The notes beneath the pieces are model-generated. The model saw only the letters and a program-made list of their open reading frames with translations, had not been told where the DNA came from and searched no databases. The position numbers were made by a program, and so were the translations under genes. Of a stretch of DNA of 64,000 nt, positions 51,391 to 59,781 are shown piece after piece (the stretch's first letter is position 1; every line of letters starts with the position of its first letter). The DNA comes from Utricularia gibba (taxonomy: Eukaryota; Streptophyta; Magnoliopsida; Lamiales; Lentibulariaceae). The stretch is from the NCBI GenBank assembly GCA_002189035.1, contig NEEC01000007.1, positions 868,001 to 932,000 on the forward strand. Reading direction: 5' to 3'.

Positions 51391-52485
51391 TGCGAAATTG
51401 TACGAAAATATGGAACATAATTGATTAAATTTATTTAATTTCATGCAGGCTCACGTGATTCACGACACCGACAGCCTTCCTGTTTTCTTTCTTTTTTTTT
51501 TTCCTGTGTATTAATCATTTTTCTTTATTTAACGTATTTTAGCATCAATATTAATTGATTTAAATACTTTTTAATAGGTGACTTGTGTATTTTTCCCAGC
51601 CGTCAATTAAATAAATTGATTTATTTACACGTGGTAGATTTTAATTCCACAAGTTGAGACGATAAACCACGTGCGAAACCAATACATTGTCTCTCCATTA
51701 TTTGGACTCGACAATATCATTAATATTTTCTATTTTATCGGAATGAAAATAAAAAAAAATGCGAAAAAACAGTGCATTGCCCTCCACTGTACGGACGAGT
51801 CGTGACTCTCGAGGGTTTCCAGTCCGAAAGAGACGCGGCACCGGACACCGTTGAAGAGCAATCCCTTATCCAGTACCTGATCCTACACTTCGTATAGATT
51901 TCCTGCGGGTTTGGGGTAGGGCCCAGAAGATTAATTGTTTATAATAATAATAAATCATCATATATTATCTCAAAGTGATGCCTTTTTTTGTAAATATTAA
52001 AGTATAAAAAATAGGATAGATATTTAAGTTTGTAGATAATCGGCGGAGTATGGAGAGTTGGGCCGGGCCTGGCCCAATTGATGGAATTGTACAGCCCATT
52101 TGTGCAGAGATTAGTGTGGACTGCGGAGAGTTGGTTTAGAACTTGGCGGTGGCTGCTGCTTTCTTCATTTGACCACTTCTTCTATTGTAGCGATATCGTT
52201 AGTTGGCGTAGGGAGAAGTCACGTTTTGCGGCTTTAAGGTTTTCAAAAATTACTTTATTGCTCTTTTGCTCCCTCCCATTTTGTGGGATGCAATTGTTCT
52301 CTTCTTTCACGTGTTGATGGCTCTTACGCTTAGTTGCTGCTTATGGATCACTTGCAGAGATTTAAGAATTGACATAGCAAAGGAATTATTGCGTTCTGTG
52401 GGGCATTGCATAAATACCATACATCATACATCCTTTATTTCTCAATCGTCACCATTTGTATTTGTATAGGAGTAGCCTGTAGGCA

Positions 52486-52804
52486 TCATGGAGACACTTC
52501 TCCGGTCTGGGACGAAGTGTGGATGGGAGGAGAAGAACAACACCTGCAGCACGCGCCTGGTGGTCCAGGTTGGCAGCAGAGGCAAGCAGGGCATATTGGA
52601 GCCCTTGTGGCCAGCTCTGGGAGAACGCAGTAATATTCATCATTGAAACATTCATGTATCTTAAGATTTAAGGGTTAGTCCACATGTATATATGAATAGA
52701 GACGTACCTTCAGTGATCAATTCACGGGAAGCATCGATGGTGCTCGGACCCTCGGAGATGAGGAGGGCGGAGATGAGGAGAGCCAAGATGAAGAATCTGG
52801 CCAT
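52486..52804 (-). CDS. Small secreted eight-cysteine peptide, copy 1
   Basis: Two exons (52708-52804, 52486-52616) join in phase to 75 residues. Exon 1 encodes a signal peptide (MARFFILALLISALLISEG) and a short polar stretch (ASRELITE). Exon 2 encodes the mature core CPACLCCQPGPPGACCRCC and a Ser/Thr/Gln tail ending GEVSP. The pattern is C-x2-C-x-CC-x7-CC-x-CC, with a Pro/Gly-rich loop between the cysteine pairs. I do not recognise a named family; it resembles uncharacterised plant cysteine-rich secreted peptides. A TATA box 47-56 bases upstream supports this ATG over an in-frame one at 52870, which lies upstream of the TATA. The paralogue is at 57211-57529. Confidence 0.78.
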
Positions 52805-52850
52805 GGAGATCAGCGGTTTGTGTGCATGGGGAAGGTTGGGGAAGAGGTTC

Positions 52851-52860
52851 TTATAAAGGG
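52851..52860 (-). promoter_or_regulatory. TATA box of cysteine-rich peptide copy 1
   Basis: CCCTTTATAA on the minus strand, about 50 bases upstream of the ATG at 52804. It is identical in the paralogue at 57576-57585. Confidence 0.65.
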
Positions 52861-53249
52861 ATGGCAGCATAGAAAAGTCTTGAGGCAGTAGTAAGGAAAA
52901 TTCTCGAGTCCTTCATGGCGGCGTACTTTTCTAATTCCCCAACTGTAAGGAAATGATTTGTATCACGGCTACTTTTTGAGAGCCAACCCACTACTTTTAA
53001 ATGAAGACTTTCCACACATCATTCTCCCTGGACTCATAATCCTTACCAGAGCACATAATGCCTTTGAGAGTTAACAACCCAGCAAGGTGTTGCTTCCCAG
53101 AGATTCTCCCCAATGATACGGAGTTTGGATGGGGGATTGTGCAAGACTTTTTGGGACAGAGAGCTTTTGCTCACTTCTTACACTGTCTTCAATGTTTTGT
53201 CAGGAGTTCCAATCTTCCTTCCATGGAATCATAAGAGTGACCACTATCA

Positions 53250-54862
53250 TGTCACGCCTGTTTCATCATAAACTTACTACACCCGTTTCACTCTTTCGCC
53301 GCAAGGTGGCTAACAGTCTGACTAGTTGCAATAAAACAGCAACATCACACGAGAGGGAATAAAATCACAATAAAAAGAACGTTTTCATCGAGACATTAAA
53401 GGAAGATGGTCCAGCATTTTATTTAAATAGAAGTTTGGTAATGAAAATTCCACGCTCAAGATGAGTGACATAGGGGCTGTTGGTTTCCTTAGACCGATGG
53501 ATCAGGGGTCCTCACCATCTAATGCCCCCTCCAGTGGCTCCTGCCCTGCGTGCAAAGTAAGGAATTAGGGGGTGTTTTACAAAATTTTTATGCTTAATTT
53601 TTATTTATAGAAAAGTAAAAGTTATTTTTTTCAGAATATACTTATTTTCAAAATTGCTTTTATTAGAAATACTTTTAAAATCATATAATTTTTTTTTTTT
53701 TTGTCAAAATCATAAGATGTATGCATTTCAAAGGTTTGTAAAAACTTATTCCCCAAATCCGTCGGCCAACATCATAGTTATTGAATTCAAAAATACTTTT
53801 TCTTAGAATTATTGATTACGGTATAGTGTGATTTTTTTTTTGTTTTCCAAAGTCTTGTTTTTATTTTTCCATATCTCATTCAAAAGAATGGGACGATTTT
53901 ATAATTGAGGAATTTTAATTTGAATTCTTTGAAGAAAATTTACTCTTGTACATTGCATAAAATGAGCTCAATTGATGTCTACTTTTCAATGGAATTAATC
54001 TATTTTTATGTTTGTTGTTTCAACTTTGTGCTTGGTTGGTCTACATCATGCTCTGTGATTAGATTAGATTAAATGTTCTAATATAATAAATCATTATTTT
54101 GAATATGATGAATTAAAGATAATGAATATTATTAATAATAATAAAATCATTTGAAAAGCAAAAATTTATTCATAACACTACAATCTGTTTTTGCTTTTGT
54201 TAAATTTACTTTCACTTTTGAAAAGTATTTCTACAAAAATAAAAGTAAGTTATAAAAGTTTTGTAAAACACACCTTTAGTCTGTCACATTCATAGCGATT
54301 TGGAAAATTGGAAAAAGAAGGCACATAAGCGTTAAATAACAAGGTTCGTGAATTCGTGGGAGTGGCGCCCTGGTGTCCCAGGGAATTGCATTCCGCGGCA
54401 AACATCCACGTTGCCTCTCGGGTGTTCTGTGGCCACAGAAGCCCAGACCCAAACCAAGGCAGTCCTTGATCTCAATTCTGAAAATAAAACCTGACCATGA
54501 TCGTGAGTGCGGTGGAGCAATTGGGTTTATGCTGGACTTCGTTACCCTTCGTTGATAAACTCGATCTCCCTATACAGAATTCCACCATCAATAAAACCCT
54601 TAAAACTCTTATCACATTTCGATTTTATCGTCACAGCTCCTCGATCATGCTTCTCTTCCACTATCGAATCCCCACTACTCCGTTCGCTGTCTCTCCTTTT
54701 ATAGCATATGGGGTCTCCCACCGTCAAAATACTCTCGAATTCTAGAGATCCGTAATTTTCATTTACAACACTAACTACTTCTTCTTAATAGTATCATCCC
54801 AAATATTTTCCTAATTCACCTCCTCAAAACTTTCCAAGGCCAATAGGGTCTGTAATGTTACA
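53250..54862. mobile_element. 1.6-kb insertion resembling a solo LTR
   Basis: The segment is absent from the otherwise matching right copy, where the site near 57969-57974 reads CTATCA once. Here CTATCA flanks it on both sides (53244-53249 and 54863-54868), as a target-site duplication would. The insert begins TGTCACGCC and ends GTTACA, giving the TG...CA termini of LTR retrotransposons, and TGTCACGCC is a common LTR start. It has no internal coding region for gag or pol. A solo LTR left after recombination is the best reading; a non-autonomous element is an alternative. Confidence 0.6.
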
Positions 54863-55011
54863 CTATCAGCACATTGGCATCCACTTGACGGGTTTCAGTC
54901 ACTGTGGACTGCTCTGCAGAGGTGCTATTCCATGATCAGAAAGGAATTTTGTTAGGAGTGTTCTCAGGTGCGTGCACTTACATGCTGCTTAGGTGTCAGT
55001 ATTCTTCTCAT

Positions 55012-56579
55012 CCAGAAAAAATCAAGGCTTGGTTCATGACCAAAGTGCTTAACCTCATAGTCTAAGACATCCAGCAGTAAACTATCTCTGCAGAATGGTT
55101 GCCACAGGCAGCAAACTGATGCATTTTCATGTTCACTTCTATCCAACTCGAACCAGGCCACGTCTTCTCGACTCCCTTCTCCTTCATCGTTGCCCTCAAC
55201 CTGGATATGTCACTCCAGCGATTTCCTTCAGCATACATGCTAATCAAGAGGTTGTAATACCCGCTGTTGTTTGGCTCCAGAATTATTAGCTTCTCTGCAG
55301 CAATTTGAGCGATTTCCACGTTTTTGTGAAGTTTACAGCCACCTAATATCGTACCCCAAATCACATTATTAGGTTTCATTTTCATGCCCTTGATCATACG
55401 CAGTGCTTCTTCCAGCAAACCAACTCGACAAAAAAGGTCAACCATGCAGACGTAGTGTTCAATCCCAGGAGGAATGGAATATTTGCTGGTCATCTCTTGG
55501 AATCTTTTTTTACCTTCCTCAACTAAACCGGAATGAGTGCATGCTGCAAGGACGCTGACAAATATAACACTGTTAGGTTCAAGCTTCGCTTCCTTCATTT
55601 TTTCAAACATTGCTAATGCTTCCTTGGCACATCCATGAAACGCGAGGCCATCAATCATGGAACTCCAGCAAAAAAGATTCTTTTTCTGCAGCTTGTAGAA
55701 AACTAAAAGCGCCTTCTCCAGCATACCACACTTAGCATACATATCAATCAATGCTGATCCTACATGAACATCGCCAGTAAATCCGTTTTGCATTGCATAC
55801 ATATGCATCTCCTTAGACTTCTCCAGCGCCCCAAGATGAGCACAAGCAGATAATACAGTTGCCATGGTCACTTCATCTGGTTAAGTGTCTGTTTTGTTTT
55901 TCATTTCATCAAAAAGTTCCAAAGCTTCTTGATACCGGTTGTGTTTGCAGTAGCACTTAATCATAGTTGTCCAAGAAATCACATCTCTTGTGCTCATTCG
56001 GTAGAACAAATGCTCCGCAGACTCCAATTCCCCAGCTTCAACATAACTGTTTATCAAGGCATTCCACGAGGCGCTCTTCTTCTCTGGCGTCTCATCGAAA
56101 ATCCTCCTGGCAGAAATCAAGTCTCCAGAACGTGCATGCGCCAAGATCATAGTAGAAAGAGAAAAATCATCTCTTTCATGCATCTCATCAAACATGTTCC
56201 TTGATTCATCAATGCTACCTAAATTCGAATAGAAATCCACCAACACTGTTTGGATATGAATGTAAATTCCAAATCCCCACTTCATAACCTGACCATGTAT
56301 ACATTCACCTAATCCTCCATAAGATGAAACCTTGCAGCTCTTTATCAATGGCGGAAAAGTGTAACTGCTCGGACTCACAGCATTCCTCATCATAAGCACG
56401 TAGAGCCATAAACAATCGGCAGGCCGCAAGGAGTTCACCAGTGCTCCGAACATTGAATTATAGACAAAAATGTTAGGATTATCAAATAATTGAAGGAAAA
56501 TGATGCAGAATCTGTGCCGCCAAAACGGGTACAAGAAGTTGTATATTGATTGATCAGAAAACAGTCTTGCGCTAAGTCG
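55012..56579 (-). pseudogene. PPR protein, broken copy
   Basis: Nearly identical to the intact gene at 58108-59781 but disabled in several places. A nonsense change turns the Lys codon AAA into TAA near 55881-55883, in the segment reading KTDT-Lys-PDEVTM in the intact copy. A one-base deletion occurs near 56480 (TCAAATAATT versus TCCAAATAATT), just before the conserved NPNIFVYNSMFGAL. Another one-base deletion lies near 55081 at the C-terminal end. The first 35 or so codons are missing, because homology ends at 56579. Two long open halves remain (55062-55871 and 55881-56588), which an automatic annotation would likely call as two genes. Confidence 0.88.
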
Positions 56580-56695
56580 CTCGAACATGATTCCGATTTT
56601 AGTATTGAGTGTTCACGGTTTAGGGTTTAAGATTTAGTAATTTAGAATTTAGGTTTAGAGTCTAGAAATTAAAATACTATGTATGCTGTTGATGT
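56580..56695. other. Junction between the duplicated units, with telomere-like words
   Basis: This spacer contains GGTTTAGGGTTTAAGATTTAG followed by further TTTAG-containing words up to about 56670. It resembles a degenerate plant telomere repeat (TTTAGGG) or a cluster of telo-box promoter elements just upstream of the broken PPR copy. Confidence 0.5.
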
Positions 56696-57210
56696 CAAAG
56701 TGATACCTTCTTTTGTAAATATTAAAGTATAAAAAATAGGATAGATATTTAAGTTATAGTTGTTGGCGGAGTATGGACAGTTGGGCCGGGCCGGGGCCCA
56801 GTGGATGGAATTGTACAGCCCATTTGTGCAGAGATTAGTGTGGACTGCTGGAGTTGGCTTAGAACTTGGCGGTGGCTGCTGCTGCTTTCATTTGACCACT
56901 TCTTCTATTGTGGCAATATCGTTAGTTGGCGTAGGAAGAAGTCACGTTTTGCGGCTTCTCAGTCTTCCAAAATGGCTTTATTGCTCTCTTGCTCGCTCCC
57001 ATTTTGTGGGATGCAATTGTTCTCTTCTTTCACGTTTTGATGGCTCTTACGCTTTGATGCTGCTTATGGGATTACTTGCAGAGATTTAAGAGTTGACATA
57101 GCATAGGAATTATTGCGTTCTGTGGGGCCATTGCATAAATACCAAACATCATACATCCTTTATTTCTCAATCGTCACCATTTGTATTTGTATAGGAGTAG
57201 CCTGTAGGCA

Positions 57211-57529
57211 TCATGGAGACACTTCTCCGGTCTGGGACGAAATGCCGATGGGAGAAGAAGAACAACACCGGCAGCACGAGCCTGGTGGTGGAGGTTGGCA
57301 GCAGAGACAATGAGGGCATATTGGAGTCCTTGTGACCAGCTCTGGGAAAACGCAGTAATATTCATCATTGAAACATTCATGTATCTTAAGATTTAAGGGT
57401 TAGTCCACATGTATATATGAATAGAGACGTACCTTCAGTGATCAATTCACGGGAAGCATCGATGGTGCTCGGACCCTCGGAGATGAGGAGGGCGGAGATG
57501 AGGAGAGCCAAGATGAAGAATCTGGCCAT
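57211..57529 (-). CDS. Small secreted eight-cysteine peptide, copy 2
   Basis: Two exons (57433-57529, 57211-57341) give 75 residues. The signal-peptide exon is identical to copy 1 in protein (MARFFILALLISALLISEG, then ASRELITE). The mature core is CPHCLCCQPPPPGSCCRCC, with all eight cysteines in the same spacing. Eight residues in exon 2 differ from copy 1 (A/V, A/T, A/H, G/P, A/S, P/S, H/G, T/I), while the tail SSQTGEVSP is unchanged. By my count 11 of the 13 base changes in the exon alter the protein. Its family and role are unrecognised; a secreted signalling or defence peptide is inference only. Confidence 0.78.
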
Positions 57530-57575
57530 GGAGATCAGCGGTTTGTGTGCATGGGGAAGGTTGGGGAAGAGGTTC

Positions 57576-57585
57576 TTATAAAGGG
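57576..57585 (-). promoter_or_regulatory. TATA box of cysteine-rich peptide copy 2
   Basis: CCCTTTATAA on the minus strand, about 50 bases upstream of the ATG at 57529, as in copy 1. Confidence 0.65.
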
Positions 57586-58107
57586 ATGGCAGCATAGAAA
57601 AGTCTTGAGGCAGTAGTAAGGAAAATTCTCGAGTCCTTCATGGCGGCGTACTTTTCTAATTCCCCCAACTGTAAGGAAATGATTTGTATCACGGCTACTT
57701 TTTGAGAGCCAACCCACTACTTTTAAATGAAGACTTTCCACACATCATTCTCCCTGGACTCATAATCCTTACCAGAGCACATAATGCCTTTGAGAGTTAA
57801 CAACCCAGCAAGGTGTTGCTTCCCAGAGATTCTCCCCAATGATACGGAGTTTGGATGGGGGATTGTGCAAGACTTTTTGGGACAGAGAGCTTTTGCTCAC
57901 TTCTTACACTGTCTTCAATATTTTTTCAGGAGTTCCAATCTTCCATGGAATCATAAGAGTGACCACTTCTATCAGCATATTGCCAGGAGTTTCAGTCACT
58001 GTGGACTGCTCTGCAGAGCTGCTATTCCATGATTAGAAAGGAATTCTGTTAGAAGTGTTCTCCAGTGCATGCACTTACATGCTGCTTAGGTGTCAGTATC
58101 CTTCTCA

Positions 58108-59781
58108 TCAAGAAAAATCAAGGCTTGGTTCATGACCAAAGTGCTTAACCTCATAGTCTAAGACATCCAGCAGTAAACTGATCTCTGCAGAATGGTTGCC
58201 GCAGGCAGCAAACTGATGCATTTTCATGTCCACTTCTATCCAACTCGAACCAGGCCACGTCTTCTCAACTCCCTTCTCCTTCATCGTTGCCCTCAACCTG
58301 GATATGTCACTCCAGTGATTTCCTTCAGCATACATGCTAATCAAGAGGCTGTAATACCCGCTGTTGTTTGGCTCCAGAATCATTAGCTTCTCTGCAGCAA
58401 TTTGAGCGATTTCCACGTTTTTGTGAAGTTTACAGCCACCTAATATCGTACCCCAAATCACATTATTAGGTTCCATTTTCATGTCCTTCATCATACGCAG
58501 TGCTTCTTCCAGCAAACCAACTCGACAAAAAAGGTCAACCATGCAGCCGTAGTGTTCAATCCCAGGAGGAATGGAATATTTGCTGGTCATCTCTTGGAAT
58601 CTTTTTTTACCTTCCTCAACTAAACCGGAATGAGTGCATGCTGCAAGGACGCTGACAAATATAACACTGTTAGGTTCAAGCTTCGCTTCCTTCATTTTTT
58701 CAAACATTGCTAATGCTTCCTTGGCACATCCATGAAACGCGAGGCCATCAATCATGGAACTCCAGCAAAAAAGATTCTTTTTCTGCAGCTTGTAGAAAAC
58801 TAAAAGCGCCTTCTCCAGCATACCACACTTAGCATACATATCAATCAATGCTGATCCTACATGAACATCGCCAGTAAATCCGTTTTGCATTGCATACATA
58901 TGCATCTCCTTAGACTTCTCCAGCGCCCCAAGATGAGCACAAGCAGATAATACAGTTGCCATAGTCACTTCATCTGGTTTAGTGTCTGTTTTGTTTTTCA
59001 TTTCATCAAAAAGTTCCAAAGCTTCTTGATACCGGTTGTGTTTGCAGTAGCACTTAATCATAGTTGTCCAAGAAATCACATCTCTTGTGCTCATTCGGTA
59101 GAACAAATGCTCCGCAGACTCCAATTCCCCAGCTTCAACATAACTGTTTATCAAGGCATTCCATGAGGCGCTCTTCTTCTCTGGCGTCTCATCGAAAATC
59201 CTCCTGGCAGAAATCAAGTCTCCAGAACGTGCATGCGCCAAGATCATAGTAGAAAGAGAAAAATCATCTCTTTCATGCATCTCATCAAACATGTTCCTTG
59301 ATTCATCAATGCTACCTAAATTCGAATAGAAATCCACCAACACTGTTTGGATATGAATGTAAATTCCAAATCCCCACTTCATAACCTGACCATGTATACA
59401 TGCACCTAATCCTCCATAAGATGAAACCTTGCAGCTTTTTATCAATGGTGGAAAAGTGTAACTGCTCGGACTCACAGCATTCCTCATCATAAGCACGTAG
59501 AGCCATAAACAATCGGCAGGCCGCAAGGAGTTCACCAGTGCTCCGAACATTGAATTATAGACAAAAATGTTAGGATTATCCAAATAATTGAAGGAAAATG
59601 ATGCAGAATCTATGCCGCCAAAGCGGGTACAAGAAGTTATATATTGATTGATCTGAAAACAATCTTGCGCTAAGTCGGTCTTGAGCATAAGGCAATACCA
59701 TGATTCCAATTCCTTCAAAGTCGAGCATCTTCTCAATTTATCCGCAACAAACTTCTTAAAAAATGGAGCACATAACTGCAT
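58108..59781 (-). CDS. Pentatricopeptide repeat protein, PLS class, E subgroup
   Basis: An intronless frame of 557 codons starts MQLCAPFFKKFVADKLRRC. PPR units of about 35 residues run from about residue 75 onward, including NIFVYNSMFGALVNS, TFPPLIKSCKVSS, SWNALINSYVEAGELESAE, ISWTTMIKCYCKHNRYQEAL, VTMATVLSACAHLGALEKS, VGSALIDMYAKCGMLEKAL and FCWSSMIDGLAFHGCAKEAL. The C-terminal E-type motifs include NVIWGTILGGCKLHKNVEI, NSGYYSLLISMYAEG and KTWPGSSWIEVDMKMHQF. There is no DYW domain; the protein ends ...GHEPSLDFS. Such proteins bind organellar RNA in a sequence-specific way, usually for C-to-U editing with a partner deaminase. A clear organellar targeting peptide is not obvious. It is the intact member of the duplicated pair. 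Confidence 0.93.
   Translation of the reverse strand: MQLCAPFFKKFVADKLRRCSTLKELESWYCLMLKTDLAQDCFQINQYITSCTRFGGIDSASFSFNYLDNPNIFVYNSMFGALVNSLRPADCLWLYVLMMRNAVSPSSYTFPPLIKSCKVSSYGGLGACIHGQVMKWGFGIYIHIQTVLVDFYSNLGSIDESRNMFDEMHERDDFSLSTMILAHARSGDLISARRIFDETPEKKSASWNALINSYVEAGELESAEHLFYRMSTRDVISWTTMIKCYCKHNRYQEALELFDEMKNKTDTKPDEVTMATVLSACAHLGALEKSKEMHMYAMQNGFTGDVHVGSALIDMYAKCGMLEKALLVFYKLQKKNLFCWSSMIDGLAFHGCAKEALAMFEKMKEAKLEPNSVIFVSVLAACTHSGLVEEGKKRFQEMTSKYSIPPGIEHYGCMVDLFCRVGLLEEALRMMKDMKMEPNNVIWGTILGGCKLHKNVEIAQIAAEKLMILEPNNSGYYSLLISMYAEGNHWSDISRLRATMKEKGVEKTWPGSSWIEVDMKMHQFAACGNHSAEISLLLDVLDYEVKHFGHEPSLDFS

What the first reader, a model, noticed from the sequence alone, without database searches (positions are those of the whole stretch)
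52486..57529. Paired cysteine-rich peptide genes: near-identical signal exon, diverged mature exon
In the two paralogues the promoter, TATA box, signal-peptide exon and intron (about 52630-52930 versus 57355-57660) are almost base-identical. The mature-peptide exon differs at 13 of 131 bases. By my codon-by-codon comparison 11 changes are non-synonymous and 2 synonymous, giving eight amino-acid differences clustered around the cysteine core, yet all eight cysteines keep their spacing. This fits diversifying selection on a secreted peptide, as in signalling or defence peptides, combined with gene conversion of the 5' half. The family is unfamiliar to me.
Basis: partly seen in the sequence, partly recalled or inferred. 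Interest (0 to 1): 0.75.

Follow-up and report, generated by a model that had tools for sequence, protein, structure and literature searches.

The report
Duplicated plant cysteine-rich secreted peptide genes
A plant genome carries two neighbouring copies of a small gene for a secreted cysteine-rich peptide; their control region and export signal are kept identical, probably by DNA copying between them, while the active peptide has changed at eight amino acids with every cysteine kept, a pattern that hints at, but does not prove, selection for new peptide variants.

Summary
Two minus-strand genes, each with two exons, sit 4,725 bp apart. Both encode 75-residue precursors with a hydrophobic leader and a C-x2-C-x-CC-x7-CC-x-CC core. 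The second exon differs by 13/131 bases: 11 non-synonymous, 2 synonymous, 8 residues, no cysteine lost. Chance gives this with P below about 1e-7, so recent homogenisation (gene conversion) is well supported. Diversifying selection is only suggestive: dN/dS is 2.05 for the mature exon, but Fisher P=0.28, or 0.018-0.078 against the non-coding flank. Cysteine retention argues that the peptide is made and used. The genome held here shows no third copy, and Pfam, NCBIfam, PDB and the open literature gave no match. I read it as a secreted cysteine-rich peptide pair of unrecognised subfamily under mosaic concerted evolution: a familiar pattern with an unfamiliar cysteine framework. Orthologues and RNA are needed.

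The parts
52708..52804 (-). Gene A exon 1: ATG, hydrophobic leader MARFFILALLISALLISEGPSTIDA and first pro-residues; identical to gene B
   Evidence: hydropathy up to 2.96
52617..52707 (-). Gene A intron, 91 bp, GT-AG, phase 1; 1 difference from gene B, 7 bp from the acceptor
52486..52616 (-). Gene A exon 2: ..EELATRAPICPACLCCQPGPPGACCRCCSSPPIHTSSQTGEVSP*
57433..57529 (-). Gene B exon 1, identical to gene A exon 1
57342..57432 (-). Gene B intron, 91 bp
57211..57341 (-). Gene B exon 2: ..EELVTRTPICPHCLCCQPPPPGSCCRCCSSSPIGISSQTGEVSP*
52624..53193 (.). Homogenised tract of copy A (promoter with TATAA 51 bp upstream of the ATG, exon 1, most of the intron): 0 substitutions in 570 sites against 57349-57919 of copy B
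52517..52623 (.). Diverged island: 14 substitutions in 107 sites
52411..52516 (-). End of coding sequence and 3' UTR with AATAAA-type signal, 1/106 different between copies
51980..52410 (.). Downstream flank of copy A, 29/424 substitutions and 8 gaps: yardstick for the age of the duplication
54883..56583 (-). PPR copy A: 5'-truncated pseudogene with an in-frame stop near 55882
58108..59781 (-). PPR copy B: intact 557-aa PPR protein with E motif
53230..54880 (.). Repeat-rich insertion in copy A only, between peptide gene A and PPR A; removes the shared sequence upstream of about -430

Best explanation
A segment holding a small secreted cysteine-rich peptide gene and a PPR gene was duplicated in tandem. 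The peptide precursor enters the secretory pathway through its leader (cleavage probably near residue 25; inferred). The short acidic pro-segment ending in ..TR is probably removed, and a ~38-residue peptide with eight cysteines, compacted by up to four disulfides, is released outside the cell, most likely as a receptor ligand or defence peptide (inferred). After duplication, ectopic gene conversion made promoter, leader exon and intron identical, so both copies probably share expression at least through the proximal ~390 bp (conversion: shown by pattern; shared expression: inferred). The ~100-bp core-coding island was not homogenised and collected eight amino-acid changes in the loops between and beside the cysteines while keeping the framework. 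The copies therefore probably make two peptides with the same fold and delivery but different surfaces. Mild positive selection, or selection against converting this island, is likelier than not but unproven.
For: Gene structure, leader, TATA box, splice sites and AATAAA are the same in both copies. There are 570 substitution-free sites in a unit with 46/1235 substitutions (P bound 1e-11, or 6e-8 without the cluster). The diverged island has 14/107, against 29/424 in the flank. Thirteen random substitutions in the core would keep every Cys and add no stop with P about 0.025-0.037; with at most 2 synonymous as well, P about 0.003. Changes by codon position are 7/5/1. NG86 dN/dS is 2.05 for the mature exon against 0.40 for the neighbouring PPR pair.
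Against: The selection test inside the exon is not significant (P=0.28), and the core window used for P=0.018 was chosen after seeing the data. Given that cysteines and the frame are kept, the low synonymous count has P about 0.07-0.14. No transcript, orthologue or third paralogue is available. AlphaFold without relatives gave no confident fold outside the leader (mean pLDDT 61.7).
Confidence: 0.6

Rival explanations
1. Same genes and same conversion, but no positive selection: the exon-2 island simply lies outside two conversion tracts and keeps the neutral divergence of the duplicates, with constraint only on cysteines.
For: Exon-2 dS (0.063) is close to the divergence of the downstream flank (29/424=0.068). 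N versus S is not significant. Divergence is patchy across the whole unit, including perfect blocks within the PPR copies, so tract edges can fall anywhere. AtLURE1 shows that tandem plant peptide genes can differ fast without detectable selection (PMC3525529).
Against: Non-synonymous changes in the core exceed flank divergence (11/71.8 against 29/424, P=0.018, post hoc). A constrained exon should fall below, not above, the neutral rate. Only 1 of 13 changes is at codon position 3.
Confidence: 0.3
2. False tandem duplication: two haplotypes joined end to end in the assembly, so the copies are alleles.
For: Copy A ends inside the PPR gene where copy B carries on, as an overlap left unmerged would do. 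Copies elsewhere in the unit are 98-99% alike.
Against: No N anywhere in the window. A ~100-bp unique junction, a 1.65-kb repeat insertion, 6.8% divergence in one block and 0% in another fit old duplicates with conversion better than alleles. The rest of the assembly holds no further copy.
Confidence: 0.07
3. Not a protein-coding gene here, or the coding strand is the other one (plus-strand ORF starting at 52488).
For: Cysteine-rich frames can arise by chance in TGC/TGT-rich DNA; pattern searches of the genome show many chance CC-x-CC strings. A 52-aa plus-strand ORF exists in copy A.
Against: The plus-strand ORF is cut short in copy B and has no leader. The minus strand has leader, TATA, splice sites, AATAAA and full Cys retention in both copies.
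Confidence: 0.05
4. A secreted metal-binding peptide (metallothionein-like use of CxCC and CCxCC) rather than a disulfide-bonded ligand.
For: A CxxCxCC motif string occurs in a paper on Tetrahymena metallothioneins (PMC1808422, search listing; paper not read); eight Cys in 19 residues is dense.
Against: The leader predicts an oxidising secretory route, where disulfides are expected. No metallothionein family hit in Pfam at E up to 10. Metallothioneins are usually cytosolic (own knowledge).
Confidence: 0.1

Closest known systems
Plant defensin-like tandem peptides, e.g. AtLURE1 (CRP810_1)
   Same: Small secreted cysteine-rich precursors, local tandem array possibly shaped by duplication and/or gene conversion (PMC3525529).
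   Different: AtLURE1 has six cysteines in another spacing and 80-95% identity; no positive selection was found there. No Pfam defensin match here.
Ginsentides and eight-cysteine hevein-like peptides
   Same: Eight cysteines, a CC pair at Cys III-IV, and signal - pro - mature order in ginsentides (PMC6212409).
   Different: The ginsentide motif is CX6CX6-7CCX2-4CXCX4-6CX1-4C; here it is CX2CXCCX7CCXCC, proline-rich and much tighter.
Metallothioneins
   Same: Dense CxCC / CCxCC strings.
   Different: Secretory leader; no family match.
Tandem venom or defence peptide genes with conserved leader and intron but diverged mature exon (snake and cone-snail families from own knowledge; mussel CRP-I, PMC10138031, seen only as an abstract)
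   Same: Evolutionary pattern: conserved leader, variable mature peptide.
   Different: Only two copies here, and part of the conservation is a conversion tract that also covers the promoter.

Membership tests
Secreted plant cysteine-rich peptides (general class) | Short precursor with N-terminal secretory leader | tested here: met
   75 aa; hydrophobic N-terminus, Kyte-Doolittle mean up to 2.96; helix 2-16 in the model. No dedicated signal-peptide predictor was available.
Secreted plant cysteine-rich peptides (general class) | Even number of cysteines (4 or more) with conserved spacing among paralogues | tested here: met
   Eight Cys, identical spacing in both copies
Secreted plant cysteine-rich peptides (general class) | Expressed and secreted | not testable with these tools
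   No RNA or protein data here
Defensins, LTPs, heveins, thionins, GASA, STIG1 and other named families in Pfam | Match to the family profile | tested here: not met
   No Pfam or NCBIfam family at E up to 10; short divergent peptides can be missed
Ginsentide / 8C hevein-like | CXnCXnCCXnCXnCXnCXnC with a single CC pair | tested here: not met
   CX2CXCCX7CCXCC has three CC pairs (motif from PMC6212409)
Metallothionein | Metal binding by free thiols, no secretory leader | tested here: inconclusive
   Leader present, metal binding not testable
Positively selected gene | dN/dS significantly above 1 | tested here: inconclusive
   2.05, Fisher P=0.28; only two sequences
Gene-conversion tract between paralogues | Stretch of identity significantly longer than expected from the divergence of its flanks | tested here: met
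   570 sites, P bound 6e-8 or lower

The most novel reading that the evidence does not exclude
A previously unnamed plant peptide family with a CX2CXCCX7CCXCC framework, in which conversion keeps promoter and leader common to both copies while selection blocks conversion of a ~100-bp specificity cassette, producing two co-expressed ligands of different specificity (for example in recognition or defence).
Probability: 0.2. Interest if true: 0.6.

Novelty: new member of a known kind. Interest (0 to 1): 0.36.

Why it matters
If confirmed in relatives, this is a compact natural test of how gene conversion and selection divide a gene: everything needed for expression and export is kept common, while only the part that meets a partner is free to change. 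The cysteine framework matched no family model searched here, so the peptide could lead to an undescribed signalling or defence family. As it stands the pattern itself is well known from other peptide families.

Tried and rejected
Third or distant paralogues: DNA and protein searches of the held genome found only these two. Loose patterns GG-x-CC-x-CC and PG-x-CC-x-CC gave many hits; those I could translate were chance CC strings with no leader or framework. Pfam, NCBIfam and PDB sequence: nothing. Literature search for the core letters or motif: nothing relevant except metallothionein motifs. AlphaFold on one sequence: too weak for a fold search, so none was run. Promoter scan: no W-box in the shared proximal promoter, so no hint of defence regulation. 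No plant genome collection is available, so orthologue dN/dS could not be done.

Full report
What is there. On the minus strand, gene A (exon 1 52804-52708, exon 2 52616-52486) and gene B (57529-57433, 57341-57211) each have a 91-bp GT-AG intron and encode 75-residue precursors. A: MARFFILALLISALLISEGPSTIDASRELITEELATRAPICPACLCCQPGPPGACCRCCSSPPIHTSSQTGEVSP. B differs at eight residues: A35V, A38T, A43H, G50P, A54S, P62S, H65G, T66I. The cysteines are at 41, 44, 46, 47, 55, 56, 58 and 59 in both. A TATAA box lies 51 bp upstream of each ATG and an AATAAA-type signal follows each stop.

Setting. The pair belongs to a tandemly duplicated segment. Copy A covers about 51967-53240 plus 54883-56583; copy B covers 56692-57980 plus 57989-59781. 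Each carries the peptide gene and, upstream of it, a PPR gene on the same strand. PPR copy B is an intact 557-residue PPR protein with an E motif. PPR copy A lacks its 5' end and has a nonsense codon, so it is a pseudogene. Only copy A has a ~1.65-kb insertion at 53230-54880 made of sequences repeated many times in the genome. So the upstream DNA of the two peptide genes is shared for only about 390-430 bp. The genome held here (100 Mb, 516 contigs, completeness unknown) has no third copy by DNA or protein search.

Mosaic divergence. Between copies, substitutions are: 3' flank 29/424; 3' UTR and coding end 1/106; island 52517-52623 14/107; then 0 in 570 sites up to 53193; 2/43 after that; PPR body about 1%, with perfect blocks; PPR 3' end about 6%. 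The 570-site run has a chance bound of 1e-11, or 6e-8 when the exon-2 cluster is left out. An intron and a distal promoter without a single change in a unit that is otherwise diverged cannot be put down to constraint on coding sequence. Gene conversion, or an equivalent recent exchange, is the best account.

Selection. NG86 on codons 34-75 gives dN 0.129, dS 0.063, ratio 2.05, with Fisher P=0.28 for N against S. Against the non-coding flank P is 0.078 for the whole exon and 0.018 for the core, the latter chosen post hoc. Changes by codon position 1/2/3 are 7/5/1. In simulations of 13 random changes in the core, keeping all cysteines and the frame has P about 0.025-0.037, and keeping them with at most two synonymous changes about 0.003; once the constraint is granted, the scarcity of synonymous changes has P about 0.07-0.14. 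So purifying selection on the cysteines is moderately supported, and excess replacement elsewhere is suggestive only. The PPR pair gives 0.40 over 498 codons, though one copy is a pseudogene. With two sequences no stronger test is possible.

How it probably works. Leader-directed secretion, removal of a short pro-segment, and a small disulfide-rich peptide acting outside the cell are inferred from the anatomy. Changes fall just before Cys1, within the first and the seven-residue loop, and after the last Cys, as expected of a partner-binding surface on a fixed scaffold. No expression or biochemical evidence exists here. The single-sequence model is not informative beyond the leader.

Compared with what is known. 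No Pfam, NCBIfam or PDB match. The framework differs from ginsentides and hevein-like peptides (PMC6212409). AtLURE1 is a warning case: a tandem, lineage-specific peptide cluster, possibly shaped by conversion, in which no positive selection was found (PMC3525529). In Arabidopsis defensin-like genes positively selected codons are few and concentrate in the mature peptide (PMC5731061). The case is therefore a new member of a known kind, with an unrecognised cysteine framework. Absence from these libraries does not show that the family is new; plant sequence collections could not be searched.

Noticed in passing
window 53562-54281: Likely non-autonomous DNA transposon nested in the copy-A insertion: imperfect inverted ends GGGTGTTTTACAAAA..TTTTGTAAAACACACC beside TTA, many relatives in the genome; resembles PIF/Harbinger (Tourist-like), judged by eye.
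   Followed up: partly
window 54883-56583: PPR pseudogene: 5' truncated, with an in-frame TAA near 55882, yet 98-99% identical to the intact copy with perfect blocks of several hundred bases, another sign of recent conversion.
   Followed up: partly
window 56584-56691: Junction of the tandem duplication is a TTTAGGGTTTAAGATTTAG-like degenerate telomere-type repeat of about 100 bp, possibly filler DNA from break repair.
   Followed up: no
G000 C58, C69, C244 (two), C366: A 35-bp string encoding CTPCPCCAPGP-like residues occurs identically at five places; probably a repeat family, unrelated to the peptide.
   Followed up: no
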